In this document: positions 5,626 through 59,829 of the stretch, piece by piece
Position numbering within the stretch: the stretch's first letter is position 1
Layout of the letters: each line of letters begins with the position of its first letter
From: a virus
DNA length: 64,000 nucleotides
Virus record (IMG/VR): IMGVR_UViG_3300027782_000030
Span: 124,001-188,000 of that record
Direction: 5' to 3' (one strand)
Program-made: the position numbers and the translations under genes
The notes under the pieces: model-generated
The model's database searches: none
Told to the model about the DNA's origin: nothing
What the model saw: only the letters and a program-made list of their open reading frames with translations

Positions 5626-5969
5626 CCATACTTCTTCATTTCTCTTACTGGGTCATTTAGTTTTTCTGCCATACTATTTTTTAAATCGTACCGTTTATGC
5701 ATTACATCTCTGACATGCAATGCTCTACGACCCACTTCTGCTAAATCGTATAAATGTTCAACACGGAATTTTTTAAAATCATCTTCTAAATCCCACACTT
5801 CCGCGTGTACTTCATATAATTGATCAAGTTCGTCCTTTATTAGTTCAAAATCAATGTCATGTAATTGTTCAGTGTAGAAGTCTAGTTCTTCTTTATTATT
5901 GCCTAATTTTGCAAATTTTAATTTGGCAATGCAATAACGGTCTACTAATTCTATTATTGGGAATTTCAT
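5622..5969 (-). CDS. Small helical protein, possibly DUF6165-like
   Basis: 115-residue, charged, mostly helical protein. It opens with PIIELVDRYCIAKLKFAKL, which resembles the GELLDKITILEIK opening of DUF6165-type proteins found beside glycan genes. That match is by memory and weak. There is no catalytic motif or membrane segment. It is the last gene of a four-gene leftward operon, and its start overlaps the upstream SGNH gene as ATGA. Confidence 0.6.
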   Translation of the reverse strand: MKFPIIELVDRYCIAKLKFAKLGNNKEELDFYTEQLHDIDFELIKDELDQLYEVHAEVWDLEDDFKKFRVEHLYDLAEVGRRALHVRDVMHKRYDLKNSMAEKLNDPVREMKKYG

Positions 5970-6670
5970 AAGTTATCTTTAATTAAATTTAAAATTTCAA
6001 TCTGCTGCTGAGGTGAGGTATGATAATGGGCATCACCGAAGATATCAACATAATTCTGTTTATATGTGTTACCGGTAATACATTCATACCATGGTACTTC
6101 AGTAATTGGCATATTAAGTAAATCAATGACTAATATAGCAGGTATATTACTTACATATAATTTATGTAATACTGCTTGCATACACCATAAATCTATTTTT
6201 CTTTTCATCATGGGTGAATACATATGCATGAACCATTGTTTTATAGCATCGTCCTTTTCTTTGGGAGCATGAGCTTTAGGGAATTTTGTTATAATTGGCT
6301 CATGTAATAACGACATAAGATTCTCACTAATTAAGGACGGCGAAGTATTATTATTTAATATCCTAGGATAATATGATATATCGAATAAGCTAGCACACCT
6401 ATTTACATATCTATTATCATTGTCTTCACCTGAAGTAGTGCTTAATTCTATGCGGTCAATGACCGTAGTCCCAAATAATATTAGATCAGGTTTATCTAAT
6501 ATGGCCTGTTCAATTTGCAGTGCGATTCCACCGTTACTCATTCCCCCGCGAGCATATGTAACAAGGTCATATCCTAATTCCTTAGCAAACAATTCTGAAA
6601 AATGAGTATTTTTATAATTATTATAATCTGGTGTCATCCAACTATCACCGCATACTATTAATTTTGGCAT
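5966..6670 (-). CDS. SGNH/GDSL-like hydrolase family protein
   Basis: 234 residues. Block I is VCGDSW with the presumed catalytic serine at S10; block II is ARGGMSNGG near residue 40; a GDAHYHTS segment near residue 216 fits the Asp-x-x-His block V. The block III asparagine is not obvious (GTTVIDRIE). SGNH proteins in phages are predicted esterases or acetyl transfer enzymes acting on sugars. It overlaps the methyltransferase gene start by 13 nt within the leftward operon. The reaction is inferred from fold only. Confidence 0.7.
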   Translation of the reverse strand: MPKLIVCGDSWMTPDYNNYKNTHFSELFAKELGYDLVTYARGGMSNGGIALQIEQAILDKPDLILFGTTVIDRIELSTTSGEDNDNRYVNRCASLFDISYYPRILNNNTSPSLISENLMSLLHEPIITKFPKAHAPKEKDDAIKQWFMHMYSPMMKRKIDLWCMQAVLHKLYVSNIPAILVIDLLNMPITEVPWYECITGNTYKQNYVDIFGDAHYHTSPQQQIEILNLIKDNL

Positions 6671-29916: not shown

Positions 29917-31017
29917 ATGGCTCAAGTATCTGACAATCTCACCGTTACTAGTGTTCAGGCCCGTAAGGCAATTCTCAAGGCGTTCAAGGTCAAACGTCCC
30001 GTGTTTCTTTGGGGTCCTCCCGGAATCGGTAAGAGTGAGGTTGTTTCCGAAATCACCGAGGAGCTCGGTGGTTTCATGATTGATTTGCGTATGGCGCAAA
30101 TGGAACCCACTGACATTCGTGGTATTCCCTTTTTCAACAAAGACAATGGCAAGATGGACTGGGCGCCCCCGGTTGATCTTCCTGACGAGGAACTTGCTAG
30201 CCAGTATCCTATCGTCTGTTTGTTCTTGGACGAGATGAACTCGGCTGCCCCTGCTGTACAGGCTGCAGGATATCAGTTGATTCTCAATCGCCGTGTTGGT
30301 AAGTACAAACTTCCTGATAACGTGGTGATTGTCGCGGCAGGTAACCGTGATAGCGACAAGGGTGTTACTTATCGTATGCCGATGCCCCTTGCTAATCGGT
30401 TCTTGCATATTGAAATGCGCCCCGACTTCACTTCGTGGCAGAACTGGGCAGTTAACAAAGGTATCCACAAGGATGTGGTTGGTTATCTGTCATTCGCTAA
30501 ACAGGATCTCTATGACTTTGATTCAAAGTCCTCTAGCCGCGCATTTGCTACTCCCCGTACTTGGTGCTTTGTCAGCGATTTGTTGAATGATGAAGAGGAT
30601 ACTGATTCCGATACCCTGTTCAACTTGGTTGCAGGTTCTGTTGGTGAAGGTCTTGCTGTTAAGTTTATGGCACACCGTAAGGTTGCGGGTCAGATGCCCG
30701 AGCCTAGCGACATTCTCGCAGGTAAGGTCAAGGAACTCCGTGTCAAGGAAGTGTCGGCAATGTACTCCCTCACGATTAGCCTGTGCTATGAATTGAAGGA
30801 TGCGCTTGACAACAAGCGTGTATCTAACAAACAGTTCCATGAAATGGCTGATAATTTCTTCAGTTACATCATGGCTAACTTTGAAACTGAGTTGGTCGTA
30901 ATGGGTGCAAAGGTCGCTCTGAAAACTTATCGTCTTCCGATCGAACCCAGTCAGTTGAAGCATTTTGATGACTTCCACAAGAAATACGGCAAGTACATTG
31001 TAGAAGCAGGTAACTGA
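29917..31017 (+). CDS. MoxR-family AAA+ ATPase
   Basis: 366 residues. Walker A GPPGIGKS at 33-40, Walker B IVCLFLDEMNSA near 98-109, then VVAAGNRDS (sensor 1) and MPMPLANRFLH. MoxR ATPases act as chaperones that load or activate a partner with a VWA domain. Exactly such a partner is encoded by the next gene. It has its own strong promoter and a terminator directly after the stop, so the two genes are separately transcribed early units. Confidence 0.9.
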   Translation: MAQVSDNLTVTSVQARKAILKAFKVKRPVFLWGPPGIGKSEVVSEITEELGGFMIDLRMAQMEPTDIRGIPFFNKDNGKMDWAPPVDLPDEELASQYPIVCLFLDEMNSAAPAVQAAGYQLILNRRVGKYKLPDNVVIVAAGNRDSDKGVTYRMPMPLANRFLHIEMRPDFTSWQNWAVNKGIHKDVVGYLSFAKQDLYDFDSKSSSRAFATPRTWCFVSDLLNDEEDTDSDTLFNLVAGSVGEGLAVKFMAHRKVAGQMPEPSDILAGKVKELRVKEVSAMYSLTISLCYELKDALDNKRVSNKQFHEMADNFFSYIMANFETELVVMGAKVALKTYRLPIEPSQLKHFDDFHKKYGKYIVEAGN

Positions 31018-37193: not shown

Positions 37194-37594
37194 GAGCAAA
37201 AGAATTTATTACCGAGCAACGGTTAGATCAAGTTCACGATGGTTTGGACGTAGCATCCATGGCTCTTCCTAATACATATGTTATTCCAAAGTTAAAAAAT
37301 AGTGACTTCTATGATTTATATCGTTTTGGTGTAGCAATTGCCGCAGTAAGAGGCGAAAGCGGTACTGACAATGTACAAAATAGTTATAAGCCTGATTTTA
37401 GAGCAGAAAGCAGTTGGGGAGAACATCAAGTAGTATCCTCAGAGTTTGATAAAGACATTGGTAAAACTATTGACCAAGCATTAAAGAAAGTTGGCAAATC
37501 CGGCAAGAAATTAGTAAGTACTCTTGGAAGTGATGAGATGGATGATACTGAATTCAACTCTCCAATTAAAGCCTTTAAGGGATATAAAAAATGA
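37190..37594 (+). CDS. MRA-x-EF small late protein (1 of 2)
   Basis: 134 residues. Starts MRAKEFITE and ends FKGYKK, both shared with the next gene although the middles differ. The sequence coding for FKGYKK plus stop (about 37575-37594) holds AAGGGA and the next ATG, so it also forms the next gene's ribosome binding site. Lies among late genes; virion or assembly role is a guess. Confidence 0.68.
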   Translation: MRAKEFITEQRLDQVHDGLDVASMALPNTYVIPKLKNSDFYDLYRFGVAIAAVRGESGTDNVQNSYKPDFRAESSWGEHQVVSSEFDKDIGKTIDQALKKVGKSGKKLVSTLGSDEMDDTEFNSPIKAFKGYKK

Positions 37595-37962
37595 GAGCGA
37601 GTGAATTTTTAGCAGAAGGTGATGGCAAATTAAATCATAACCATGCACAAGCATCTAAGGGAATTTATAAAGTTCGTGATCGGGGTGGTTATGATCGTAC
37701 CTATCACATAAACCGTTTAATGATGGCTGCTGCTATGGCTGATGGTAAGAGCCAAGATGCGGTTACAATGGACAACTCTAGTTTTGTTGAAAAATATAAC
37801 TCTGTTCATCCATATACCGAAGAAGAATATAATATGCTTATTTCCGCAACAAAGACTATCCCAACAGAAAAACATGAGGTTGTTCCTTATTCTAAGAGCC
37901 AAGAACCTGAAGATACTAATACCAAAAGTATTGCTGTAGGATTTAAGGGCTATAAAAAATAA
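37591..37962 (+). CDS. MRA-x-EF small late protein (2 of 2)
   Basis: 123 residues. Starts MRASEFLAE and ends GFKGYKK like its neighbour. The middle is rich in histidine, aspartate and asparagine (HNHAQASKGIYKVRDRGGYD). Shared ends with unlike middles suggest terminal tags for packaging or binding, or recombination at conserved ends. Confidence 0.68.
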   Translation: MRASEFLAEGDGKLNHNHAQASKGIYKVRDRGGYDRTYHINRLMMAAAMADGKSQDAVTMDNSSFVEKYNSVHPYTEEEYNMLISATKTIPTEKHEVVPYSKSQEPEDTNTKSIAVGFKGYKK

Positions 37963-39004: not shown

Positions 39005-40552
39005 ATGAGTGGATCACCATCATTAGTTAAAACTCCTTATGTAAAAACTAAATTCGCAACACAAAAAGAATTAGATGATTTTGTTAAGTGTTGCGACCCA
39101 GTTACTGGTTATCTATACTTTATGGATAACTTCTTTATGATACAACATCCTACCAAGGGCAGCATGGTATATCATCCATGGGATTATCAAAAACGACTAA
39201 TTCATACATACCACAATTATCGTTTTAGTATTAGTTTGATGCCTCGTCAAAGCGGTAAATCTACTAGTGCTGCTGGCTATCTACTTTGGTATGCTATGTT
39301 CGTACCCGACTCTACTATTCTTATAGCAGCACATAAGTATACAGGCGCACAAGAAATCATGCAGCGTATTCGCTACGCATATGAAAATTGCCCTGACTAT
39401 ATTAAAGCAGGTGTTACTACATACAACAAAGGATCATTAGACTTTGAGAATGGTAGTCGTATAGTTTCAGCCACTACTACTGAAAATACAGGTCGTGGTA
39501 TGTCTATCACACTACTATACCTAGATGAGTTTGCGTTTGTTCGACCTACTATTGCTGAACAGTTTTGGACTTCTATTACACCTACACTATCAACTGGTGG
39601 TAAAGCAATTATCACTAGCACTCCGAATAGTGACGAAGATCAATTCGCTCTTATTTGGAAAGGTGCTAATAAAACAGAAGATTCATATGGCAATCAAACT
39701 GAATTAGGTGTAAATGGATTTAGAGCATATAGGGCACATTGGACTGAGCAACCTGGCAGGGATCAAAAATGGGCTGATGAAATGAAAGCCCAACTAGGAG
39801 AAGATAGATTCCGTCGTGAAATAGGCTGCGAATTTATTATTGCGGATGAAACCCTTATCAATCCTAGTACATTAATTGATTTAGAAGGTATTGAACCTAT
39901 CACTCGCATGGGACAAGTTCGCTGGTATAAAAAGCCTGAGAAAGGTAATATTTACGCAGTAGGATTGGATCCAAGTTTAGGCACTGGTGGTGATCCTGCT
40001 GCTATACAAATTTTTGAGGCTAATACTACTACCCAAATTGGTGAATGGAAACATAATAAAACAGATATACCTAATCAGATTAAATTATTAGCACAAATAA
40101 ACAAGTATATCGTAGAGTGTACAGGAGAAACTGATAATCTATATTATAGTATAGAGAACAATTCTATTGGTGAAGCCTCTCTAATATCATTGGCAGAATA
40201 TGGTGAAACTAATATACCAGGTATTTTTTTAAGTGAGTCAGGCAAAAAGCGTAGAGGATACAATACTACACAAAAGTCTAAAATCACTGCCTGTGCTAAA
40301 TTTAAAACGCTATTAGAAAGCAAGAAAATGAAAATTTATAGCAAAAGTTTGATATCAGAATTAAAGACTTTTGTTGCTAGTGGTGGTAGTTATGCGGCTA
40401 AGATAGGTGATACTGATGATTTGATTATGGCTTCATTGTTAACAGTTAGAATGCTACAATCTTTAAGTGATTACTATCATGACTTGGGAGAACAAATTCG
40501 TGACCATGATGAATACATTCAACCATTACCATTCTTCGCCGTCTTAAGTTAA
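39005..40552 (+). CDS. terL: Terminase large subunit, T4 gp17-like
   Basis: 515 residues. ATPase domain: Walker A MPRQSGKST (79-87), Walker B LLYLDEFAF (~169-177), ITSTPN coupling motif. Nuclease domain: VGLDPSLGTGGDPAA (first acidic site ~320), a YYSIENN segment and GDTDDLIMA near the end. Packages phage DNA into the prohead. Shorter than T4 gp17 (610 residues). It anchors the late module and the T4-like assignment. Confidence 0.93.
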   Translation: MSGSPSLVKTPYVKTKFATQKELDDFVKCCDPVTGYLYFMDNFFMIQHPTKGSMVYHPWDYQKRLIHTYHNYRFSISLMPRQSGKSTSAAGYLLWYAMFVPDSTILIAAHKYTGAQEIMQRIRYAYENCPDYIKAGVTTYNKGSLDFENGSRIVSATTTENTGRGMSITLLYLDEFAFVRPTIAEQFWTSITPTLSTGGKAIITSTPNSDEDQFALIWKGANKTEDSYGNQTELGVNGFRAYRAHWTEQPGRDQKWADEMKAQLGEDRFRREIGCEFIIADETLINPSTLIDLEGIEPITRMGQVRWYKKPEKGNIYAVGLDPSLGTGGDPAAIQIFEANTTTQIGEWKHNKTDIPNQIKLLAQINKYIVECTGETDNLYYSIENNSIGEASLISLAEYGETNIPGIFLSESGKKRRGYNTTQKSKITACAKFKTLLESKKMKIYSKSLISELKTFVASGGSYAAKIGDTDDLIMASLLTVRMLQSLSDYYHDLGEQIRDHDEYIQPLPFFAVLS

Positions 40553-40558
40553 TACAAA

Positions 40559-40566
40559 GATAAATA
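40559..40566 (+). promoter_or_regulatory. Late-promoter-like octamer GATAAATA
   Basis: Followed by CTAT then ATG at 40571; the predicted start (40572) falls within the start codon, so the message would be leaderless or one base off. Confidence 0.55.
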
Positions 40567-40570
40567 CTAT

Positions 40571-42664
40571 ATGCCCATTAAAACAGACTCATTAAACCGC
40601 GATTTATACAAATTACTCAAGGTAAGGGGTTACGATCCTATACCAAAAGGCAGCGATGGGGAAACAGTACCTGTTCCTGATGAAGCCGAAGTTTTTAAGT
40701 TTACTTTCAAAAAAGAAGGTAAACCGATAGACACTGCTTGGGTAACTATTGACAGTAACCAAGACTTAAAAATATATTATGATGATGATATTACTGACTC
40801 TACTAACGAAGATTTAGAATCAGGATCGTTTGATGATAGTTGGACTGGGTTTTTACAACAGTTAAAGATGTGGAGTCAACGCCGGCAGTTAGGTTTTGAT
40901 ACCGAAAACAAAGACCATTTAGCTAGTGATATGGCACAGAGGGATCATATGAAAAAGAAAGAAAACATAGCAGAAGGATATTATCCAATGGGTAAACAAG
41001 CAAGTTATAGTGACGCTATCCCTAGTGTCAAAATAATATTACAACATAACCGTAAACTTGAAGAAGGTGAACAGCGTTATCGTAATATTTCTAGAATTTT
41101 CGTTGAAAATGCTAATGGCGAACGCTTTTTACTTAACACTACTAAGCCAGGTCTTGCCCGAGTATATGCTAGACATATCGCAGAGGGTGGCACACCATAT
41201 GATGACCGCGCTAGTCATATTCAATCATTGGTTGAAGAATATGAAAAAATGGCAGGATTTGTCCGTGCTACACGCAATGGACAGTTTAATGAAAGTACCC
41301 AACGCTTAGTACTAGAAGGAGCTAATCATTATCAATCATTAAGAGAAACTCTAAGCCGCATGACAGGTCGTCGCGGATACAATATGTATTTTGAAAGTTG
41401 GACTCCTGCTCTAATGGAAGATGATAGTGAAGTTTCAGGTATTAATGAATTATTCGTTCAGGAAACACTAGATCCTAGAATTGAAAGTGCTATGCCAATT
41501 CTTAAGAAATTGCACAAGAAACTTGGTGAGATGAAAGAAGTTACTCAGTTAGAAGAGTGGGCAGATAGTTTAGTAAATGAATATAAGCAGGGTGATGACA
41601 GTGGTTATATTCAGCTATTACAAAGTAAATTAAAAGCAGGCAAGCCACTAACTCCCCAAGAAAAAGAAAAACTTAAAGCATATCTTGCGGCTAAACAGTT
41701 AGGTCTAAAAGAAGAAGGTGATAGTGGTCAAACAGCACTTAATCCAGTTGGTATTCCTGAAGATGAACTTGATGAAGGCAAGGGCGCTATAAGAAAATTC
41801 TTAGCAGGTTTAGGAATCATAGGTGCTTTAGGCGCACATATCAGTAGTGAAGACGAAGCCATAATACAAAGAATGGCTGTAAAGTATGACCAAGCGCAGA
41901 CTCCACAAGAGAAAGCACAAATCAAGCATGACATTGAAAGAGTTACAAAAGGTAGTTTAGTTAAAGAAGAAGATATAGAAGAAAGCGGGCTACAGGCATA
42001 TCTTGGTAATAAGAAATATGGCAAAGAAGGTATGGATGCTTTACGCAAAGCAGGCCGTGATGGTGCTAGTAAAGAAAAGATGGCATCAATTCGTTCTAAG
42101 TATGACAAACTAGATGAAGAACATATGGCGGAAGACTCATTAAATGAATGGGTAGATCCAGGCGCGCCATGTGCTCATTGCGGATTGTCACACGGACAAC
42201 ATCGTGTTCAGTTCAATAAAAAAAATCCAAATGTTAGTTTTATGAATCAAGACGATGAATGGAACGATTTGGAAATGAAAAATGCTGAAGACCACCCCTA
42301 TACGCCAAGTAAAGGTTATCGCCCACTATCGCAGCGAGAAGCAGAGTTGGTTGGATTTGACAATCTAAATGTTGATATACCAAACGATATATATGACCGT
42401 ATTAATAGTGTAAGACAGCGCCTAGCCCGAGTAGGTAAAGATGCCGGCAAACTTACAAGAGTCAAAGAGCAAGGTGTGGAAGAAGACCTTGATGCCAACC
42501 AAAAGCGTGTAGGACAATTAGGCCCAACCGAAAAGGTAGGTAAAAAAGGTGCGGTTGGTAAACTAGTTGGCGCTAGTGAAAGTTTTATCAATACAGTTGA
42601 CCAAGCAGTAACGACTGAAGGTGTAGAAGAATTGGCTGCACTAAAACGATTATTGGGTAAATAA
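40571..42664 (+). CDS. 697-residue late protein of unknown function
   Basis: Long, acidic, helical protein. Begins with a small alpha/beta domain (~1-110), then FVENANGERFLLNTTKPGLA and many helices with lysine/glutamate-rich stretches (~320-400, 470-520). A possible metal site APCAHCGLSHGQH lies near residue 530. Late octamer upstream and terminator downstream make it a single-gene late unit next to terminase. A virion or prohead-core role is plausible but unproven. Confidence 0.7.
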   Translation: MPIKTDSLNRDLYKLLKVRGYDPIPKGSDGETVPVPDEAEVFKFTFKKEGKPIDTAWVTIDSNQDLKIYYDDDITDSTNEDLESGSFDDSWTGFLQQLKMWSQRRQLGFDTENKDHLASDMAQRDHMKKKENIAEGYYPMGKQASYSDAIPSVKIILQHNRKLEEGEQRYRNISRIFVENANGERFLLNTTKPGLARVYARHIAEGGTPYDDRASHIQSLVEEYEKMAGFVRATRNGQFNESTQRLVLEGANHYQSLRETLSRMTGRRGYNMYFESWTPALMEDDSEVSGINELFVQETLDPRIESAMPILKKLHKKLGEMKEVTQLEEWADSLVNEYKQGDDSGYIQLLQSKLKAGKPLTPQEKEKLKAYLAAKQLGLKEEGDSGQTALNPVGIPEDELDEGKGAIRKFLAGLGIIGALGAHISSEDEAIIQRMAVKYDQAQTPQEKAQIKHDIERVTKGSLVKEEDIEESGLQAYLGNKKYGKEGMDALRKAGRDGASKEKMASIRSKYDKLDEEHMAEDSLNEWVDPGAPCAHCGLSHGQHRVQFNKKNPNVSFMNQDDEWNDLEMKNAEDHPYTPSKGYRPLSQREAELVGFDNLNVDIPNDIYDRINSVRQRLARVGKDAGKLTRVKEQGVEEDLDANQKRVGQLGPTEKVGKKGAVGKLVGASESFINTVDQAVTTEGVEELAALKRLLGK

Positions 42665-42673
42665 CTTTCTAAA

Positions 42674-42697
42674 AAACCTCACTTTTTAGTGAGGTTT
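42674..42697 (+). terminator. Terminator-like hairpin
   Basis: AAACCTCACT (42674-42683), TTTT loop, AGTGAGGTTT (42688-42697): 10-bp stem between the late module and the gp32 promoter. T tail is short; the A run on the other side would help minus-strand termination. Confidence 0.75.
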
Positions 42698-42719
42698 ACC
42701 ATATTCGGCATAAATACAC

Positions 42720-42748
42720 TTGACGCAGCATGAAAGTTGTTATATACT
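42720..42748 (+). promoter_or_regulatory. Sigma70-type promoter TTGACG-17-TATACT, with overlapping late octamer
   Basis: TTGACG at 42720 and TATACT at 42743 with 17-bp spacing. A CATAAATA octamer at 42710-42717 sits directly upstream, so gp32 may be read both early and late. The leader is long (about 80 nt). Confidence 0.75.
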
Positions 42749-42831
42749 TAGTACTGTGTTAGTTGTCTCCTGACAACGACATTTAAATCATATTTAGGCT
42801 CAAATTAGGCACATTTTTAAGGAGAAAACAA

Positions 42832-43812
42832 ATGGCAAGTCTAGCAGAAATCCGCGCTCGCATTTCAGCGCAAGAAAACAAGTCAACCAAGGGCTCTAAC
42901 GCCCAATCAGATAACGCAATCTACCCCCACTGGAACATGGATGAAGGTACTTCAGCTACCCTTCGTTTTCTTCCAGATGCGGAATCAAAGAATGAATTCT
43001 TTTGGGTAGAGCGAGCAATGATTAAACTCCCATTCAACGGAGTTAAAGGCGATTCTAATACTAAACAAATTCAGGTACAAGTCCCATGCGTAGAAATGTA
43101 TGGCGATAACTGTCCTATTTTGGCAGAAGTTCGTCCATGGTACAAGGACGAAAGTCTCAAGGAAATGGCTAATAAGTATTGGAAGAAACGCAGTTATATT
43201 TTTCAAGGGTTCGTTCGCCAAAACCCTATTCAGGATGACAAGACTCCTACGAATCCTATTCGTCGGTTTATTATCAGCCCACAAATTATTCCTATTATCC
43301 GTACTGGTTTGATGGATCCCGAGATCCTAGAACTTCCTACTGATTATGTTCGTGGATTGGATTTTAAAATTATTAAAACCAGCAAAGGTGGTTATGCTGA
43401 CTACAGTACCAGCAATTGGTCTCGTAGGGAAAGCGCACTGACCGAAGCCGAGCAACAAGCAATTGAAGAACATGGTCTTTTCAACTTGGTAGACTTCTTG
43501 CCCAAGAAGCCTAGTGAGGCTGAATTGCGTGTTATCAAAGAAATGTTTGAAGCAAGCGTTGAAGGTCGTCCATACGATAATGATCGTTGGGGAGCATACT
43601 ATCGTCCATATGGTCTAGAAGCACCTGCAGGAGCAACAGCGGCTCAAACACAAGCGACTACTAGTAGCGCACCCGCAACAGCACCCGTAGCAGATTCGCA
43701 TGATGACCATGATGATGAAGCATCAAGTCCAGTTGTAGTTCCCAAAAATGCTCAAAGCGATAAAGCGCAAGACATTTTGGCAATGATCCGAGCCAGACAA
43801 AAATCTGCTTAA
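42832..43812 (+). CDS. Single-stranded DNA-binding protein, gp32-like
   Basis: 326 residues. MASLAEIRARISAQE resembles the basic N-terminal cooperativity region of gp32-like proteins; ATLRFLPD, FFWVERAMIKLPF and VQVPC with YGDNCPILAE belong to the OB-fold core. The zinc-finger cysteines of T4 gp32 are only partly present. The tail is acidic (DSHDDHDDEASSP), as needed for partner contacts. A long leader with AAGGAG precedes it; gp32 in T4 controls its own translation, and the leader here might serve that. Confidence 0.87.
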   Translation: MASLAEIRARISAQENKSTKGSNAQSDNAIYPHWNMDEGTSATLRFLPDAESKNEFFWVERAMIKLPFNGVKGDSNTKQIQVQVPCVEMYGDNCPILAEVRPWYKDESLKEMANKYWKKRSYIFQGFVRQNPIQDDKTPTNPIRRFIISPQIIPIIRTGLMDPEILELPTDYVRGLDFKIIKTSKGGYADYSTSNWSRRESALTEAEQQAIEEHGLFNLVDFLPKKPSEAELRVIKEMFEASVEGRPYDNDRWGAYYRPYGLEAPAGATAAQTQATTSSAPATAPVADSHDDHDDEASSPVVVPKNAQSDKAQDILAMIRARQKSA

Positions 43813-43820
43813 TAGGAGTT

Positions 43821-43838
43821 AGGGAGCAAATGCTCCCT
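43821..43838 (+). other. Hairpin between gp32-like and BPSL0761-like genes
   Basis: AGGGAGCA (43821-43828) pairs with TGCTCCCT (43831-43838). No T run, so more likely a weak attenuator or mRNA stabiliser than a full terminator. Confidence 0.55.
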
Positions 43839-43855
43839 TACTTAGGAGAATTCCC

Positions 43856-44092
43856 ATGACATTACCAGACGAAAGGTTTCGTGCCCTTAAGCAAGGCAAA
43901 AAATTACTTGAGGAGTTATGTGATCCCGGTCGTACTCCTCGTGTTCCTAGCTTGGTCAGAGATAAAGCAAGGGCTGCTCTAAGACATTATCCTAGCGATT
44001 ACGAATTGGATCGCATTGCGGATCAATGTCCAGATATCCTTGACAAATTATCATTTGCTGATAAACTATATGCTAGTGGAATACACAAATAA
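43856..44092 (+). CDS. BPSL0761-like small protein
   Basis: 78 residues. TLPDERFRALKQGKKLLEEL, then VPSLVRDKARAALRHYPSD, match from memory the pattern of the BPSL0761 family of Burkholderia and other proteobacteria, whose function is unknown. AGGAG precedes the ATG. It lies between the gp32-like and uvsX genes, which hints at a DNA role and a proteobacterial host. Confidence 0.75.
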   Translation: MTLPDERFRALKQGKKLLEELCDPGRTPRVPSLVRDKARAALRHYPSDYELDRIADQCPDILDKLSFADKLYASGIHK

Positions 44093-47366: not shown

Positions 47367-47675
47367 ATGGAAAAAGTTATCCGCGATGGTAAAGTTGCTA
47401 TACTCACTAGCCCTGGTTACGGAGCTGGTTGGTATTCGTGGCATATGATTCCTGAATTAATGTATGACCCTACCGTAGTCTCTATGGTGGAGGATCGTGT
47501 TAATTATGAGGCAATTGAGGCTTATTGCGAAGAACGGTGGCCTGACAACTATTTTGGTGGAGCCGAAGATTTGGTAATTACTTGGGTCCCTGAGGGTAGG
47601 GTTTTCATTATTAATGAATATGACGGGGCTGAATACATCCAATTCAGGGATGACATTGAATGGATGGTAGCCTAG
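47367..47675 (+). CDS. 102-residue conserved phage-type protein of unknown function
   Basis: VAILTSPGYGAGWYSWHM followed by a helical part and a C-terminal beta part (VFIINEYDGAEYIQF). A similar opening is, from memory, widespread in tailed phages without known function. AGGA precedes the ATG. Confidence 0.7.
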   Translation: MEKVIRDGKVAILTSPGYGAGWYSWHMIPELMYDPTVVSMVEDRVNYEAIEAYCEERWPDNYFGGAEDLVITWVPEGRVFIINEYDGAEYIQFRDDIEWMVA

Positions 47676-47676
47676 G

Positions 47677-47705
47677 TTGACATTAAATTGCTGGTAGCGT
47701 ATACT
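47677..47705 (+). promoter_or_regulatory. Sigma70 promoter TTGACA-17-TATACT
   Basis: Boxes at 47677 and 47700, 17-bp spacing. Leader contains CACTGAAAAACGAGG, a variant of the shared leader. Confidence 0.85.
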
Positions 47706-47734
47706 AAGGTATACACTGAAAAACGAGGTGAGCA

Positions 47735-47929
47735 ATGAGTGCAATGGGCAGGCTTTATACAGAAATCCAAGAACTCTTAGAAGACGGAGTATTCCCGACG
47801 GTGATTGCAAGTCGGCTTGAGGTTCCCCTAAGTTGGGTAGATCAGATCCGCATGGATTTGGATGAGCCTGATTTGCCCTATGATAGTGAGGAGCAGTTCC
47901 AAGATTACGATTCAGCCCTAGAAATTTGA
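47735..47929 (+). CDS. 64-residue helix-turn-helix-like small protein
   Basis: MSAMGRLYTEIQELLEDG, then FPTVIASRLEVPLSWVDQI, has the spacing of a helix-turn-helix (IASRLEVPLSWV). The tail is acidic. Could be a small regulator. Own promoter; the next promoter overlaps its end. Confidence 0.65.
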   Translation: MSAMGRLYTEIQELLEDGVFPTVIASRLEVPLSWVDQIRMDLDEPDLPYDSEEQFQDYDSALEI

Positions 47930-47954
47930 CAATAATTCGGTTTGGGCGTATAAT
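47926..47954 (+). promoter_or_regulatory. Sigma70 promoter TTGACA-17-TATAAT, leader type B
   Basis: Perfect boxes at 47926 and 47949. The leader carries GACAGTTAACTAACGGAG, shared in near-identical form with the promoter at 48666. Confidence 0.9.
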
Positions 47955-47987
47955 CTATACATAGACAGTTAACTAACGGAGCAGAAA

Positions 47988-48254
47988 ATGTTCGTTGTTT
48001 TTCACACTGAATTTCCCCATCAAGACAAGCGTTATTTCACGACCAAGGCAGGTGCCAAGCGTAGTGCTACCTGTTCTAATCGGAACGCAGGTAAGTTTGT
48101 CTACAACTTTGTGGAAGAATCTTGGTTCGAACTCAAGTATGGCCCGGTTGGTACTAAGGTCGTCAAGAACCTGATGACTGGTAAGGATATTGAAATTGCC
48201 GAGGATACTCCTTGGTGTTGTAACCCCGCTAGCGAAGCGTATTGGAGTAACTAA
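47988..48254 (+). CDS. 88-residue protein of unknown function
   Basis: Starts MFVVFHTEFPHQDKRYFTTK; basic in the middle (AGAKRSATCSNRNAG), acidic toward the end with a CC pair (TPWCCNPAS). No domain recognised. CGGAG stands in the leader. G+C-richer codons than the flanking late genes. Confidence 0.68.
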   Translation: MFVVFHTEFPHQDKRYFTTKAGAKRSATCSNRNAGKFVYNFVEESWFELKYGPVGTKVVKNLMTGKDIEIAEDTPWCCNPASEAYWSN

Positions 48255-48258
48255 TTAT

Positions 48259-48287
48259 TTGACAATAATTCGGTTTGGGCGTATAAT
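48259..48287 (+). promoter_or_regulatory. Sigma70 promoter TTGACA-17-TATAAT, leader type A
   Basis: Perfect boxes at 48259 and 48282. The 31 bases from TATAAT to CGGAG (48282-48312) are identical at 49051-49081 and 51031-51061. Confidence 0.92.
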
Positions 48288-48317
48288 AGATTCATACACT
48301 GAGAAAACGGAGTTGTC

Positions 48318-48647
48318 ATGAATATGCTAGAAAAAGAAACCCAGTTCAAAAGCGCGGGTTACTATGCATGGTGTGCTTCTAGGGACGCAAGTATGCGTAG
48401 CGCGGTCAACGCTAGCCGGTTCAGTAGTGCCCAAAAACTCAGGGCCGACCGAGTAAAATTGGCCCTAGAGTTGGTCTATACGGCTAAGGAAGTGTCAATC
48501 ACTAACTGTAAAAAATGGATCCGCGTTAAGGTACACGGTGGGACGGTTCGTGACAAAAAAACCCTTCAACAGTTGGAAAGTGGCTGGGCCATGCAAGGAA
48601 TTCAAAAAAACATCACCCCTCAGGGCGTGATTTATCGTGTTGCGTAA
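48318..48647 (+). CDS. 109-residue basic protein of unknown function
   Basis: Basic, with FKSAGYYAWCASRDASMRS, then SSAQKLRADRVKLALELV, and a beta-rich end. Charge pattern would allow nucleic acid binding. Type A leader upstream. No family recognised. Confidence 0.66.
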   Translation: MNMLEKETQFKSAGYYAWCASRDASMRSAVNASRFSSAQKLRADRVKLALELVYTAKEVSITNCKKWIRVKVHGGTVRDKKTLQQLESGWAMQGIQKNITPQGVIYRVA

Positions 48648-48665
48648 AAGCAACAAGATCAAAAT

Positions 48666-48694
48666 TTGACAATAATTGATTTTGGATATACAAT
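48666..48694 (+). promoter_or_regulatory. Sigma70-type promoter TTGACA-17-TACAAT, leader type B
   Basis: Boxes at 48666 and 48689. Leader GACAGTTAAACAACGGAG pairs it with the promoter at 47926. Confidence 0.85.
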
Positions 48695-48726
48695 CTAATC
48701 TTAGACAGTTAAACAACGGAGAGAAA

Positions 48727-49011
48727 ATGGTAACGATTCAGGACATCAATTCTACTATTATCGCAGGTTTGTTCACAAACGAACAACTGGATTCCATTGC
48801 AATGGCAATCAAGTTTGCCCGCAATCAACTAGCCGCAAAGGCAAAGTTTACCTTGGTTAAGGGTACTAATGTCAAGTTTACATCTAGCCGTACCGGTCAA
48901 ACTGTGCTTGGTACAGTTGAAAAGGTAAATCGAAAGTTCATAATTGTGCGTGAGAATGGCAAGGCATTCGGTACTTGGCGTGTCCCTGCTAATATGCTTG
49001 AAGCCGCTTAA
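48727..49011 (+). CDS. 94-residue protein, small beta-barrel-like C-terminus
   Basis: Helical N-terminal half (MVTIQDINSTIIAGLFTNEQ) and a C-terminal SH3/KOW-like beta part: GTNVKFTSSRTGQTVLGTVE, then KFIIVREN. Such barrels bind RNA, DNA or peptides. ATG at 48727 follows CGGAGAG. Confidence 0.65.
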   Translation: MVTIQDINSTIIAGLFTNEQLDSIAMAIKFARNQLAAKAKFTLVKGTNVKFTSSRTGQTVLGTVEKVNRKFIIVRENGKAFGTWRVPANMLEAA

Positions 49012-49027
49012 TTGTTCAACCCAAAAT

Positions 49028-49056
49028 TTGACAATAATTGGGCTTGTCTGTATAAT
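49028..49056 (+). promoter_or_regulatory. Sigma70 promoter TTGACA-17-TATAAT, leader type A
   Basis: Perfect boxes at 49028 and 49051; leader identical to those at 48282 and 51031. Confidence 0.92.
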
Positions 49057-49087
49057 AGATTCATACACTGAGAAAACGGAGAAACAA

Positions 49088-49501
49088 ATGGCTTATATCA
49101 ATCAGGAACGTAAAGCGAAATTGGCCCCCACAATCAAGGCAATCTTGACCAAGTATGGTGTCAAGGGTTCGCTAAGTGTTCGTAATCACAGCACACTGGT
49201 TCTGACCCTGAAGTCGGGAAAAATTGATTTCATCGGCAGCAGTAACCGAGTTTGCGGTAATGATTTTTACCAAGTTTCTCGTGGTTTCAAGCCGAACACC
49301 TCGGGCTACTGTGATGTTAACCCGTACTGGTACAAGGATCACTATGACGGCGTTGCACTGTCTTTCCTCAAGGAAGTGATTGTAGCCATGAACGATGGTA
49401 ACCACGACAATTCGGATATTCAATCCGACTATTTTGATGTGGGCTGGTATATTGATGTTAACGTTGGTAAGTGGGATAAGCCTTACACTGTTGAAGCCTA
49501 A
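49088..49501 (+). CDS. 137-residue conserved phage-type protein of unknown function
   Basis: Starts MAYINQERKAKLAPTIKAIL, then KYGVKGSLSVRNHSTLVLTL and a C-terminal aromatic-rich part (NPYWYKDHYDG, YFDVGWYIDVNVG). The pattern recalls a protein common in large phages but with no function known to me. ATG at 49088 right after the type A leader. Ends 22 nt before a GTG-started gene. Confidence 0.7.
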   Translation: MAYINQERKAKLAPTIKAILTKYGVKGSLSVRNHSTLVLTLKSGKIDFIGSSNRVCGNDFYQVSRGFKPNTSGYCDVNPYWYKDHYDGVALSFLKEVIVAMNDGNHDNSDIQSDYFDVGWYIDVNVGKWDKPYTVEA

Positions 49502-49523
49502 TCAGGCATACAAGGAGAACACC

Positions 49524-49742
49524 GTGGGTTACAAAGTTTTGGCAGACAAATTTCAGATGGACGAGATGCGTACCAAATATGGTCCTCGCAAGGGACTTGA
49601 GGGACCATTCAACTTCTCGGGTCGGGTGTTGTACTATGACACCAAAGAGGGTCAGTATTACGACCCCAAGACCGACTTCTACGTGGAACAGGCCGAAATG
49701 GATCTGATTCACGCCCGTATCACTGATATCCTGAAAGCCTAA
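49524..49742 (+). CDS. 72-residue protein of unknown function (GTG start)
   Basis: Starts at GTG (49524) with AAGGAG 7 nt before it. Reads MGYKVLADKFQMDEMRTKYG, then a tyrosine-rich segment (VLYYDTKEGQYYDP). Shares the promoter of the preceding gene. Confidence 0.65.
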   Translation: MGYKVLADKFQMDEMRTKYGPRKGLEGPFNFSGRVLYYDTKEGQYYDPKTDFYVEQAEMDLIHARITDILKA

Positions 49743-49743
49743 T

Positions 49744-49944
49744 ATGTATAATTTATTGTACATTGTAAATTTTGTGTTTATGGGCACTTACGCCGATTTG
49801 CCCTCATGCCAAAACGCACTATATGAAATTTACGCTACTAAGATGAATATCCCTGGACAGCGGAATCCTGAATTGGATAAGGTTATCCAAAGCCAGTTGA
49901 AATTGGATAGAAGTTTCGTGTGCGTTCCAGTGAAGAAAGGTTAA
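49744..49944 (+). CDS. 66-residue protein with hydrophobic start
   Basis: MYNLLYIVNFVFMGTYADLP is a short hydrophobic start that could be a signal or membrane anchor, followed by a charged part and two cysteines (SCQNAL, FVCVP) that could form a disulfide. Lies 1 nt after the previous stop; no clear ribosome binding site. Confidence 0.55.
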   Translation: MYNLLYIVNFVFMGTYADLPSCQNALYEIYATKMNIPGQRNPELDKVIQSQLKLDRSFVCVPVKKG

Positions 49945-49957
49945 TATGGAGTTATAT

Positions 49958-55763: not shown

Positions 55764-56439
55764 TACTAAATTTGGCTGTGAATTTTGTAAACGGGAGTTT
55801 ATTCGTGAATCCACGGTATTAAAACATATATGTGAATATAAACATCGTTGGTTAGAAAAAGACAAGCAAAGTAATAGATTAGGTTTTCAGGCTTGGTTAG
55901 AATTCTACAAGAAAAATAGCGCATCTAAAAAATATAAAACCTACGAAGAATTTATTCGTAATCCTTATTACACAGCCTTCGCAAAGTTTGGTTTATATTG
56001 TACTGAAGTAAATGTTATCAATGTAAGTAGATACCTAGATTGGTTATTAAAAGACCAAATTAAAATTGATGAATGGTGTCATGATTCTGTTTATACTAGG
56101 TTCTTAATAGAATATTTGCGTAGTGAAGATCCATTTGATGCTATTCATAGAAGTGTAGAAACTACTATGAAATTTGCCGAGTTGGAAAGAATCCAACATA
56201 AGGATTACCTAAGATATGGCAACAAAAACAAAATCTGCTATGCTGTAACCAAAGGTAAAATCAGCCCATGGATGTTGTACCAAAGTGAGTCAGGTGTCCA
56301 TTTTCTAGATACAATAAATCCAGACCATGTTAAACTTATCATTGATTACATAAGTCCCGAGCAGTGGACATTACGATTTAGGCGTGATCCAAAAGTAGTT
56401 GGTGATATTAAGGACTTACTAAATGCGATCGGTTTATAA
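55738..56439 (+). CDS. Zinc-finger protein of unknown function
   Basis: 233 residues. A C2H2-type finger CEFCKREFIRESTVLKHICE lies near the start (~14-33). The body is helical with YYTAFAKFGLYC and KGKISPWMLYQSESG. The layout is familiar from T4-like marine phages near replication genes. ATG at 55738 is chosen over a TTG three codons earlier. Function not known; DNA binding is likely. Confidence 0.7.
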   Translation: MKKTEETINTKFGCEFCKREFIRESTVLKHICEYKHRWLEKDKQSNRLGFQAWLEFYKKNSASKKYKTYEEFIRNPYYTAFAKFGLYCTEVNVINVSRYLDWLLKDQIKIDEWCHDSVYTRFLIEYLRSEDPFDAIHRSVETTMKFAELERIQHKDYLRYGNKNKICYAVTKGKISPWMLYQSESGVHFLDTINPDHVKLIIDYISPEQWTLRFRRDPKVVGDIKDLLNAIGL

Positions 56440-56626
56440 ATTTAAGGTTCGTATTCCGTGGCGTAAGAATATGACTGTCACCGATTGGGATCAAGTTTGT
56501 ATTTGGGCGCTTGAAAATTATGGTACGCCGGGCTCTAAATATGTAACCACACTGACGCAAGATTATATGGATTTTTGTTTTCTTGATAGTAAAGATGCGA
56601 TTCACTTTTCCCTACGCTGGGAATAA
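56423..56626 (+). CDS. LRW-family small protein (67 residues)
   Basis: VYKFKVRIPWRKNMTVTDWD, then WALENYGTPG, then DAIHFSLRWE. The W-x-x-x-x-YG and F-x-LRW marks are shared with the tandem array at 58662-59829, so this is a separated member. It overlaps the preceding gene by 17 nt. Confidence 0.7.
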   Translation: MRSVYKFKVRIPWRKNMTVTDWDQVCIWALENYGTPGSKYVTTLTQDYMDFCFLDSKDAIHFSLRWE

Positions 56627-56643: not shown

Positions 56644-58659
56644 ATGAAATTCAAAATGTTGGCAGCAAGCGTAGCATTGGCCTGTTCTAGTTTGGCTTAT
56701 GCTCAGACTACAGAATATTCACTAAGCCGTAGCCTTGATGTAGTTAAGGCTAGCGCCGCATATGCCCGAGGTTACACAGGTAAGGGCAGTGTTATTGCTG
56801 TACTAGATACAGGCATTGACACCAGTAGTGATGAATTTAAAAACAAGATCCTAGCGATTAAGGACTTCAGCAACAGTGGTACTATCGTTGATAAAGTTGG
56901 CCATGGTACTCATGTTGCGGGAATTGCGGCAGCAGCTAAAAATGGTGTAGGTGTTCAAGGTGTAGCATATGATGCTAGTTTGATCATTGGTAAAATCACT
57001 AACACCGGTGCTATGAATACTCAAACTGTTCTTACAGCCGCTACATGGGCTGCTAGTTTGGGTGCTGATGTTGCTAATATGAGTGTTACATTTCCTATTA
57101 GCCGTAACACACTTGTCCCAGTATTGATTGCTTCGGGTATTTACAAAACAGTGTATACTAATACTGGTAAACTGCCTTATGACTTTGATGCTAAAGCATG
57201 GGCGGCGGCTACTAAAGGTGAAATGGTTATGGTTGTAGCCGCAGGTAATGAGGCTACTGCATGGTCAAGTAGTATTACTCAATTGGCTACCGCTACTGAC
57301 GCAAATGGTAATTTGCTCTTGGGTGGCCGAATGATTATCGCTGGTAATTGGAATAGCATTACTAATAAAACAATTGGTCCTTCAACCAATGGTGCGGCAC
57401 ATCTATGCCAAGTTATGGTAAATTCTATTTGTCAGGACAAGTACAAGGCATATGACTTTTTTCTAATGGCACCCGGTACTAGCATCATTAGCACTGCACC
57501 TAAGACACCTGTTAACCCAACTGGATTGGCTACTATGTCTGGTACATCAATGGCAGCACCCGCTGTTTCAGGTGGTGCCGCTCTTATCCATCAGATGTGG
57601 CCACAGATGACAGGCTCTAACATTGTTAGGTTGTTGTTGGTTACTGCTAATAAGAATCTTCCTGGCTATAGTCTATATACTATGGGTCAAGGTCTAATGG
57701 ATCTTGATAAAGCAACTAGCCCAGTTGGATCAGTTGGTATTCCAACTACAGGTCGATTGTCTGGTACTACTTTAGCAAGCGCAAGACCTCTTGTTTACAC
57801 GGCAACTGGAAGTGCTAGCACAGGTAAACTAAGCGGCATTATGGTAGTAGATAGTTTTGAGCGAGATTTCTATCTGAATGGAAAAGCATTTACCGCACAC
57901 AAGAAAGCCGATCCTTTCAATCATCAACAAGCAATGATGCCTTATGAGTCGCACAACCCCTATACATTGTTCAATACATACTATGACCGTACCAATGTTA
58001 AAGTAGGCTCATATGAGATGAGCATTTACCGCGATACTACTAACATGTTGGAAACATCACCCATGATGTTGGAACTGGCTTACACTAAAAACTTTGGTGA
58101 CACCAGCGTCAAGTTTTCAGGTGGTTTCTTCAATGAAACTAACACTTGGTTGGGTAACAGCGTAGGTAGTTTTGTAGGTGATGGTAAAAACAATAACAGC
58201 ACTACACAATTTGCTGGTGTTGAATTGAACAAAGCATTTGACACTGGTACTAATGTGTATGCTAATTTTATGCATGGTGTTACCAAAACAAACTCTAACA
58301 GCGAGAATATTCAAAAAATCGGAAGTGTCCTAAGTTACGCATGGACGGCAGGAATTGAGCAATCATTGAATTCTACTAACAAAGTAGGTGTTATGGTATA
58401 TCAACCTGTTACTGTCTATCGTGCCAATGCTGATTTGGTTGCTCCTGTTGGACTTGATAGTTCATTCAATGTCATTCAGAACAGTAGTGTCAACCTAGCC
58501 GCAGATGTACATGAACTTAGAACAGGTATCTACCATAAGTTTCAAAACTCTAAAGAGTTTAACACTATGGCATTTGTAGAGGCTCGGCAAAATTATCGTG
58601 GCCAACTGGGACAAAATGACATGGCTGTAGGATTCAAACTTACGAAAACATTTGATTAA
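56644..58659 (+). CDS. Exported subtilisin-like serine protease, possible autotransporter
   Basis: 671 residues. Signal peptide MKFKMLAASVALACSSLAYA, cleaved before Q21. S8 protease triad complete: D55 (VLDTGID), H87 (GHGTHVAG), S302 (MSGTSMAAP). From about 390 the sequence changes to alternating beta strands with many Asn, Thr and Gly and ends MAVGFKLTKTFD, like an outer-membrane barrel. That is the plan of SphB1/NalP-type autotransporters. It could shed surface proteins of the infected cell, aid release or block superinfection. AAGGGATATGAT precedes the ATG. Confidence 0.82.
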   Translation: MKFKMLAASVALACSSLAYAQTTEYSLSRSLDVVKASAAYARGYTGKGSVIAVLDTGIDTSSDEFKNKILAIKDFSNSGTIVDKVGHGTHVAGIAAAAKNGVGVQGVAYDASLIIGKITNTGAMNTQTVLTAATWAASLGADVANMSVTFPISRNTLVPVLIASGIYKTVYTNTGKLPYDFDAKAWAAATKGEMVMVVAAGNEATAWSSSITQLATATDANGNLLLGGRMIIAGNWNSITNKTIGPSTNGAAHLCQVMVNSICQDKYKAYDFFLMAPGTSIISTAPKTPVNPTGLATMSGTSMAAPAVSGGAALIHQMWPQMTGSNIVRLLLVTANKNLPGYSLYTMGQGLMDLDKATSPVGSVGIPTTGRLSGTTLASARPLVYTATGSASTGKLSGIMVVDSFERDFYLNGKAFTAHKKADPFNHQQAMMPYESHNPYTLFNTYYDRTNVKVGSYEMSIYRDTTNMLETSPMMLELAYTKNFGDTSVKFSGGFFNETNTWLGNSVGSFVGDGKNNNSTTQFAGVELNKAFDTGTNVYANFMHGVTKTNSNSENIQKIGSVLSYAWTAGIEQSLNSTNKVGVMVYQPVTVYRANADLVAPVGLDSSFNVIQNSSVNLAADVHELRTGIYHKFQNSKEFNTMAFVEARQNYRGQLGQNDMAVGFKLTKTFD

Positions 58660-58661
58660 TT

Positions 58662-58910
58662 TTGTTTTATTACAATCATGAATCACCAAAGACTTGGGAA
58701 CAATGTAAGCCAGGTTGGTATGAATTTAAAATCTATTTGAATGATTCAGTATCACATGAACTTAAGTATATAGAATCAATTATAGATTGGGTTTACAATA
58801 ATATTGACAAATGTGAAAGACATGCTAGATGGGCTGTAACAAATGAATCCTTTAACATTAAGTTTCGTTACCAACGAGACTATATGATGTTTGTTTTGCG
58901 TTGGTCATGA
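58662..58910 (+). CDS. LRW-family small protein, irregular start
   Basis: In-frame coding from TTG at 58662; residues CKPGWYEFKIYLNDSVS, then YMMFVLRWS at the end mark it as a family member. No in-frame ATG exists before the end and no ribosome binding site is evident; an out-of-frame ATG at 58679 hints at an old frameshift. It is either TTG-started or decaying. The stop overlaps the next ATG. Confidence 0.5.
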   Translation: MFYYNHESPKTWEQCKPGWYEFKIYLNDSVSHELKYIESIIDWVYNNIDKCERHARWAVTNESFNIKFRYQRDYMMFVLRWS

Positions 58911-59119
58911 ATTCTGTTATAATTTATAATAAACACACCGGTGAAATCAGCGGTATAATAAATGAATTAAAAACGCATGGGCTCATTGCTAATGAGCATT
59001 ATGAATTTAGATATTATCCCGGTACTTGGGATCCCATGATAGGTGATGTTCCAAAAAAGTGTGAGTTTACTTTTAAAGATGCTAAACTAGCAAGTTGGTT
59101 TCTATTGAGGTGGGGATGA
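58907..59119 (+). CDS. LRW-family small protein (70 residues)
   Basis: MNSVIIYNKHTGEISGIINE, a beta-rich middle, and the end ASWFLLRWG. The codons for RWG plus stop read AGGTGGGGATGA and supply both ribosome binding site and start codon of the next gene. Confidence 0.72.
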   Translation: MNSVIIYNKHTGEISGIINELKTHGLIANEHYEFRYYPGTWDPMIGDVPKKCEFTFKDAKLASWFLLRWG

Positions 59120-59310
59120 AACTACTAAAAGCCGACCAAGCCGATAGTTTAGTAGTCATCATAAGAGATTATGAATTTTTTGATGGAGAGACTACCGAAG
59201 AAATGGATGAGTGGTGTTGGCAAACATTTGGATATCATCCTAGAGAGGGTATGGTTATGACATTTAAAGAGCCTAGTCATACTAATTGGTTTATGTTAAG
59301 ATGGGGATAA
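59116..59310 (+). CDS. LRW-family small protein (64 residues)
   Basis: MKLLKADQADSLVVIIRDYE, EWCWQTFGYHPREG and the end TNWFMLRWG. W-C-x-x-x-FG is shared with the next two members. The next gene starts inside its RWG codons (10-nt overlap). Confidence 0.72.
   Translation: MKLLKADQADSLVVIIRDYEFFDGETTEEMDEWCWQTFGYHPREGMVMTFKEPSHTNWFMLRWG
59283..59309 (+). repeat. 27-bp direct repeat, copy 1
   Basis: Encodes NWFMLRWG at the end of one LRW gene and the start of the next. Identical to 59566-59592. Confidence 0.95.
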
Positions 59311-59552: not shown

Positions 59553-59593
59553 TTAAACTTCTATGTAATTGGTTTATGTTAAGATGGGGATAG
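59540..59593 (+). pseudogene. Relic end of an LRW-family gene
   Basis: A 17-residue frame (MDELIKLLCNWFMLRWG) holds the family end without a body. It carries copy 2 of the 27-bp repeat, consistent with a deletion or unequal exchange that removed the gene but kept its end and its RBS function. Confidence 0.6.
59566..59592 (+). repeat. 27-bp direct repeat, copy 2
   Basis: Second copy, within the relic and over the start of the next gene. Confidence 0.95.
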
Positions 59594-59829
59594 AGACTAA
59601 ATGCAAGCGGAGAACACCAGAAGATTGGCATACCGTGATTACTGGAAAAGCCAATCACTGGCAGGCCATTGATTGGTGTACTGAACAATTTGGTCGACGC
59701 TGGGGTGTTGTAGATAATAGAGATGGCGTATGGTGTTGCTTTTGGGCTGGTCGAGAACAATTTGGTTCTTATAGATGGTATTTTGAAAATGAGTGTGATG
59801 CTATGTGGTTTACAATGAGGTGGGCGTGA
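59584..59829 (+). CDS. LRW-family small protein (81 residues)
   Basis: Starts MGIETKCKRRTPEDWHTVIT inside the relic's RWG codons, has IDWCTEQFGRRWGVVDNRDG, and ends DAMWFTMRWA. Last member of the array; a promoter follows. Confidence 0.72.
   Translation: MGIETKCKRRTPEDWHTVITGKANHWQAIDWCTEQFGRRWGVVDNRDGVWCCFWAGREQFGSYRWYFENECDAMWFTMRWA

What the first reader, a model, noticed from the sequence alone, without database searches (positions are those of the whole stretch)
56644..58659. Phage-encoded exported subtilisin with barrel-like C-terminus
Full Asp-His-Ser triad, clear signal peptide, and a C-terminal third that looks like an autotransporter barrel ending in F-D. Secreted proteases are rare in lytic phages. 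It could trim surface receptors (superinfection exclusion), help release, or act outside the host.
Basis: partly seen in the sequence, partly recalled or inferred. Interest (0 to 1): 0.8.

Follow-up and report, generated by a model that had tools for sequence, protein, structure and literature searches.

The report
Phage-borne outer-membrane-anchored subtilisin protease
A large uncultured T4-like phage of a Gram-negative host, like dozens of its relatives, carries a gene for a protein-cutting enzyme that appears built to be exported and anchored in the host's outer membrane by its own barrel, suggesting that these phages rework the surface of the infected cell with a protease.

Summary
The ORF at 56644-58659 (+) encodes 671 aa: a Sec signal peptide, a subtilase domain (Pfam S8, E 9e-37) with D55/H87/N202/S302, and a C-terminal domain ending in a conserved Phe. 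In 48 aligned viral homologues the four catalytic positions are invariant and the terminal position is Phe/Tyr. The C-terminal domain, modelled at pLDDT 90.7 / pTM 0.86, has twelve main beta strands preceded by a helix, and its top PDB matches are overwhelmingly outer-membrane beta-barrels, including the autotransporters Hbp, EspP, EstA and BrkA, but at low TM-scores. Sequence profiles tie it to the C-terminal domain of alphaproteobacterial S8 proteins (hhalign P 1e-17; shuffled controls nothing), not to the classical autotransporter family PF03797. All such phage proteins form one clade (100/100) among proteobacterial secreted subtilases, apart from the intracellular-type subtilisins of phages of Gram-positive bacteria. 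The gene recurs in at least two phage backgrounds, away from the virion and lysis genes recognised here, under strong purifying selection (dN/dS about 0.06). Best reading: an autotransporter-like, self-anchoring surface protease of the infected cell. The target is unknown; trimming of surface proteins is the leading guess. No cultured phage record carries this C-terminal domain.

The parts
56644..58659 (+). whole gene: exported S8 (subtilase) protease with C-terminal outer-membrane-type barrel, 671 aa
   Evidence: identical or near-identical gene and neighbours on independent contigs L002 and L006
56632..56637 (+). ribosome-binding site AAGGGA
   Evidence: sequence
56644..56703 (+). Sec signal peptide, residues 1-20, predicted cleavage AYA/Q
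   Evidence: sequence; conserved in relatives
56779..57693 (+). Peptidase_S8 catalytic domain, residues 46-350
   Evidence: Pfam PF00082 E 9.4e-37
56806..56808 (+). catalytic Asp55
   Evidence: 48/48 viral homologues
56902..56904 (+). catalytic His87
   Evidence: 48/48 viral homologues
57247..57249 (+). oxyanion-hole Asn202
   Evidence: 48/48 viral homologues
57547..57549 (+). catalytic Ser302 (GTSMAAP)
   Evidence: 48/48 viral homologues
57406..57432 (+). Cys255...Cys263, conserved cysteine pair, candidate short-range disulphide
   Evidence: 47/47 ungapped homologues
57838..57876 (+). motif IMVVDSFERDFY region, residues 399-411, shared with bacterial S8 C-termini (DSYQRDY and similar)
57922..57969 (+). 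helical stretch, residues 427-442, directly before the first barrel strand
   Evidence: AlphaFold2 model
57985..58653 (+). predicted barrel domain, residues 448-670, twelve main strands, ending in conserved Phe670
   Evidence: model pLDDT 90.7, pTM 0.86; PDB matches to outer-membrane barrels; terminal Phe/Tyr 47/47

Best explanation
The gene encodes a self-anchoring, autotransporter-like serine protease. During infection it is made in a Gram-negative host, exported by Sec (signal peptide: read from sequence), its C-terminal domain is inserted in the host outer membrane as a barrel of about twelve strands (predicted with high confidence), and the N-terminal subtilisin domain is carried to, or held at, the cell surface (inferred from architecture and homology). 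There it most likely cuts host surface proteins, such as receptors, adhesins or other outer-membrane proteins, remodelling the surface of the infected cell (role inferred, not shown). It descends from proteobacterial secreted S8 proteins, probably by one old acquisition, and has since moved between at least two phage genome backgrounds.
For: S8 domain with all catalytic residues invariant across 48 viral proteins. Signal peptide plus terminal Phe/Tyr in nearly all complete members. C-terminal domain modelled at pLDDT 90.7 / pTM 0.86 with a helix followed by twelve main strands; the top 50 PDB matches are overwhelmingly outer-membrane barrels, among them Hbp, EspP, EstA and BrkA. Profile homology to the C-terminus of alphaproteobacterial S8 proteins, Prob 98.9, P 1.4e-17 over 185 columns, against P 0.06-0.93 for 20 column shuffles and 0.5 for the reversed profile. 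Monophyly 100/100 and grouping with proteobacterial S8 proteins rather than phage or Firmicute subtilisins. dN/dS about 0.06 in both domains. Gene lies among DNA-metabolism genes, not in the identified virion module. Gram-negative host supported by co-encoded PstS, TctC and a porin-like protein; PstS is 55-56% identical to that of two Burkholderiales MAGs.
Against: No PF03797 or other autotransporter-barrel match by sequence, and no profile similarity to classical autotransporter barrels. Translocation of the protease to the outside, and any substrate, are unproven. The full-length model had only pLDDT 67.
Confidence: 0.6

Rival explanations
1. Nutrient-scavenging auxiliary gene: the surface protease digests extracellular protein to feed the infected cell, alongside other exported scavenging proteins of the same phage.
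For: The same genome encodes exported PstS and a TctC-type binding protein, and PstS is a known phage auxiliary gene (many cyanophages).
Against: pstS and the porin-like gene are found only in the two window-type genomes (G000, G004) of 14 protease-bearing records; the 164-kb and 302-kb records lack them (records may be incomplete). No peptide uptake gene was sought or seen beside the protease.
Confidence: 0.25
2. Outer-membrane-tethered periplasmic protease: the barrel anchors the protein, but the N-terminal protease stays on the periplasmic side, acting on periplasmic or nascent outer-membrane proteins, for instance to weaken the envelope before lysis.
For: An N-terminal domain ahead of an even-stranded barrel is periplasmic by default; membership of the classical translocating family PF03797 was tested and not met.
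Against: Helix directly before the first strand and S8-plus-barrel domain order resemble known autotransporters (architecture of NalP, SphB1 and Ssp from general knowledge). Gene lies outside the lysis or virion genes recognised.
Confidence: 0.2
3. Virion-associated protease that helps entry.
For: One PHROG of the matching family is called only 'protease'; virion proteases exist in other phages (general knowledge).
Against: Signal peptide and membrane barrel are unsuited to cytoplasmic virion assembly; portal and major head genes are about 105 kb away; neighbours in both backgrounds are DNA metabolism, glycosyltransferase-like and queE genes; it does not group with the other phage subtilisins tested.
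Confidence: 0.05
4. Host gene wrongly assigned to a phage (bacterial contamination or chimaeric contig).
For: Host-derived by ancestry; the Pseudomonas phage Y5 hit looks like such contamination.
Against: Same gene with the same phage neighbours on many independent contigs up to 335 kb; two different phage contexts; a phage-only clade with a long stem.
Confidence: 0.01

Closest known systems
Alphaproteobacterial S8 family serine peptidases with a C-terminal domain of about 340-425 aa (Erythrobacteraceae, Sphingomonadaceae, Caulobacter, a Rickettsiales MAG L039)
   Same: S8 domain followed by a homologous C-terminal domain ending in an aromatic residue; nearest neighbours in the trees
   Different: Bacterial forms are longer (about 790-880 aa), many are lipoproteins with a Cys-Gly-rich linker, and their C-terminal domain is 340-425 aa against about 315; catalytic domains are only about 30% identical. 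None is functionally characterised as far as found here.
Classical S8 autotransporters (EprS of Pseudomonas, Ssp of Serratia, NalP, SphB1; type Va secretion, PF03797)
   Same: Signal peptide, N-terminal subtilase passenger, C-terminal 12-strand-type barrel with preceding helix, terminal Phe; best PDB profile match is 8e7f, 'Extracellular serine protease'
   Different: No sequence relation of the barrel to PF03797; no passenger beta-helix repeats; 671 aa against about 970-1010
Subtilisin-like proteases of phages of Gram-positive hosts (Bacillus phages Goe3/Goe17, SP-15, FADO; Moorella MTATph1)
   Same: Phage-encoded S8 domain
   Different: About 286-375 aa, several annotated as intracellular-type, without the C-terminal domain; those placed in the tree group with Firmicute subtilisins
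A0A6J5TBB6, 'Peptidase S8/S53 domain containing protein' [uncultured Caudovirales phage] (BFVD)
   Same: S8-named phage protein of similar length (689 aa) with a C-terminal structure match of TM 0.68, 21% identity
   Different: A database entry only; no description of the architecture or role was found in the paper library

Membership tests
Peptidase family S8 (subtilases) | Asp-His-Ser triad and oxyanion Asn in S8 motifs | tested here: met
   PF00082 E 9.4e-37; D55/H87/N202/S302 invariant in 48/48
Peptidase family S8 (subtilases) | Proteolytic activity | not testable with these tools
   needs expression and an S302A control
Classical monomeric autotransporter (type Va) | Sec signal peptide, N-terminal passenger, C-terminal translocator | tested here: met
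   Domain order; signal peptide judged by eye, no dedicated predictor available
Classical monomeric autotransporter (type Va) | Sequence match to the autotransporter beta-domain (PF03797 / TIGR01414) | tested here: not met
   no hit in Pfam or NCBIfam; hhalign P 0.23 against classical barrels
Classical monomeric autotransporter (type Va) | 12-strand barrel with a helix before the first strand | tested here: inconclusive
   twelve main strands and helix 427-442 in a pLDDT 90.7 model, but barrel closure not inspected and TM to solved autotransporters 0.28-0.37
Classical monomeric autotransporter (type Va) | C-terminal aromatic residue for BAM recognition | tested here: met
   Phe/Tyr at aligned position 670 in 47/47; the window and a few others carry one extra residue
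Classical monomeric autotransporter (type Va) | Passenger translocated to the cell surface | not testable with these tools
   needs protease shaving or surface labelling
Alphaproteobacterial S8 plus C-terminal barrel-like domain group (unnamed) | homologous C-terminal domain after S8 | tested here: met
   hhalign Prob 98.9, P 1.4e-17, controls negative
Virion-associated phage proteases | gene in virion module or clustering with phage proteases | tested here: not met
   neighbours and tree; virion proteomics not available
Intracellular-type phage subtilisins of Gram-positive phages | groups with Firmicute subtilisins, no signal peptide or barrel | tested here: not met

The most novel reading that the evidence does not exclude
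Tailed phages of Gram-negative bacteria carry their own lineage of autotransporter-like surface proteases, with a barrel type distinct in sequence from PF03797, and use it to shave receptors or other proteins off the infected cell, that is superinfection exclusion or progeny protection by extracellular proteolysis.
Probability: 0.3. Interest if true: 0.82.

Novelty: new variant of a known kind. Interest (0 to 1): 0.6.

Why it matters
Phage effects on the outer membrane are known mostly from small lipoproteins and prophage barrels (general knowledge). A conserved, catalytically intact protease anchored by its own barrel, in dozens of uncultured phages of at least two genome backgrounds, would mean that large phages actively edit the surface proteome of infected cells. 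It also points to a barrel family, shared with Alphaproteobacteria, that current autotransporter models miss.

Tried and rejected
Full-length AlphaFold2 model was too weak (pLDDT 67), and its PDB search returned only subtilisins; the C-terminal domain was therefore folded alone with a 35-row alignment. T4-type late promoter TATAAATA: none close upstream of the gene. Sigma-70-type sites in the region were not above the shuffled expectation. No Rfam match nearby. Contamination was rejected because of repeated synteny. A link to phosphate scavenging was tested by co-occurrence and is not general. The 524-aa exported lipoprotein beside pstS looked like PhoX, but the PhoX family search was negative. 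Another copy of the barrel in the genome was sought and not found. Per-strand hydrophobic alternation was weak (most p above 0.05) and is not used as evidence beyond a domain-wide excess over the catalytic domain. Searches of the paper library with terms for phage, autotransporter and subtilisin found no description of such a protein.

Full report
What is there. The ORF at 56644-58659 (+) is 671 codons with an ATG start and an AAGGGA ribosome-binding site. The window is bases 124001-188000 of a 200,570-base virus record. That record is a T4-like tailed phage: terminase, portal and major head protein, UvsW-like helicase and 21 tRNA genes, with no integrase match. The protein has a type I signal peptide (residues 1-20), a subtilase domain (46-350, Pfam E 9.4e-37), a linker, and a C-terminal domain ending in Phe670-Asp671.

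Conservation. One scan of IMG/VR with the protein, and one with the alignment, gave 53 viral loci. In 48 aligned viral proteins Asp55, His87, Asn202 and Ser302 are invariant, Cys255 and Cys263 are present in all 47 ungapped rows, and the position of Phe670 is Phe or Tyr in all 47. dN/dS is about 0.06 in both the catalytic and the C-terminal domain between the window and its nearest relatives, so both halves are maintained.

C-terminal domain. Folded alone with a 35-row alignment (29 viral rows including the window, 6 bacterial) it reaches pLDDT 90.7 and pTM 0.86. Counting strands of the model gives a small hairpin (399-411), a helix (427-442), then twelve main strands: 448-454, 457-463, 474-484, 487-498, 519-531, 536-549, 556-574, 579-604, 609-617, 625-634, 639-649 and 658-668. 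Foldseek against the PDB returns overwhelmingly outer-membrane barrels in the top 50, with the autotransporters Hbp, EspP, EstA and BrkA among porins and TodX, but TM-scores are about 0.25-0.41 (a few mitochondrial barrels score lower). It is thus an outer-membrane-type barrel by class; identity with the autotransporter fold in particular is likely but not proven. Coordinates could not be inspected.

Homology. The C-terminal domain shows no PF03797 hit and no profile similarity to classical autotransporter barrels. It does show strong similarity to the C-terminus of alphaproteobacterial S8 proteins: hhalign Prob 98.9, P 1.4e-17 over 185 columns, against P 0.06-0.93 for 20 column-shuffled versions and 0.51 for the reversed profile (an earlier alignment gave P 3.5e-12). 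Motifs such as VVDSFERDFY and QPVTV...APVGLD recur in the bacterial proteins. These bacterial proteins also lack a PF03797 hit. In the careful tree of catalytic domains all phage rows of this type form one clade (100/100). They join proteobacterial S8 proteins across a 100/99 branch and stand apart from those Gram-positive phage subtilisins that could be placed, which group with Firmicute enzymes. Two of the cultured-phage enzymes fetched could not be trimmed automatically and are not in that tree. The exact bacterial sister is not resolved, and a closer donor may have been missed because only one bacterial scan was available.

Context. Two settings recur. In the window's group the gene follows a UvsW-like helicase and several small genes. 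In the second group it lies between a gene that reads like a glycosyltransferase (no PHROG match) and queE, near DNA polymerase and an exonuclease. The window group nests inside the second group in the tree, so the gene probably moved between backgrounds. Portal and major head genes of the window phage lie about 105 kb away on the other strand. The window phage also encodes other envelope proteins: PstS, a TctC-type binding protein, a short porin-like protein and an FG-GAP lipoprotein. The PstS is 55-56% identical to that of two Burkholderiales MAGs and was not matched in three alphaproteobacterial ones, which suggests a Burkholderiales-like host; this is an inference. In 14 protease-bearing records pstS and the porin-like gene occur only in the two window-type genomes, so the protease does not depend on them.

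How it most likely works. Shown: intact subtilase residues, conservation, selection, monophyly. Predicted: export and an outer-membrane barrel. Inferred: the protease faces outward and cuts surface proteins. A role in blocking re-adsorption or superinfection is plausible but has no direct evidence; nutrient scavenging and a periplasm-facing protease remain open.

Known or new. In 50,697 cultured-phage records the closest matches are S8 domains at 24-38% identity, none covering 80% of the protein, and the C-terminal domain alone has no match even at E 1. The one hit from a Pseudomonas phage (Y5, an unverified record) is a Pseudomonas EprS-like autotransporter next to a bacterial oxidoreductase and looks like host contamination. 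BFVD holds a probable relative from an uncultured phage and several phage proteins named autotransporter or porin, so phage-encoded outer-membrane proteins are in databases. No description of a phage subtilase autotransporter was found in the paper library. I therefore rate it a new variant of a known kind.

Noticed in passing
G000 48973-49953 (-) and 47373-48947 (-) (L114:10973-11953, L114:9373-10947): Exported PstS-like phosphate-binding protein next to a 524-aa lipoprotein of unknown family; PstS 55-56% identical to that of two Burkholderiales MAGs.
   Followed up: partly
G000 30028-30939 (-) (L113:11028-11939): Exported TctC/Bug-type substrate-binding protein (Pfam E 1e-16), an unusual phage gene and a hint of a betaproteobacterial host.
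   Followed up: partly
G000 37246-37827 (-) (L113:18246-18827): Short exported porin-like barrel (PF13609 E 2.5e-7), also in the 335-kb relative G004.
   Followed up: partly
G000 4603-6108 (-) (L112): 501-aa lipoprotein with FG-GAP repeats.
   Followed up: no
G000 40170-44013 (-) (L114:2170-6013): Two adjacent exported proteins, 512 aa and 792 aa, low-complexity and Asn/Ser/Thr-rich, no Pfam match.
   Followed up: no
window 56423-56626, 58662-58910, 58901-59119, 59095-59310, 59569-59829 (+): A run of small (about 67-86 aa) ORFs flanking the protease that end in similar ...LRW/MRW motifs; looks like a tandem paralogue family.
   Followed up: no
G000 95688-114728 (+) (L117): Open frame of 6346 aa, not examined.
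   Followed up: no
L026, L027, L143-L150 group; L152; L154-L156: Relatives with N-terminal extensions before the S8 domain (Ala-rich about 100-150 aa, or several hundred aa); L152 begins like a lipoprotein.
   Followed up: partly
L031 (OQ572407.1, Pseudomonas phage Y5, unverified): Carries a Pseudomonas EprS-like autotransporter beside a bacterial oxidoreductase: probable host contamination in the record.
   Followed up: partly
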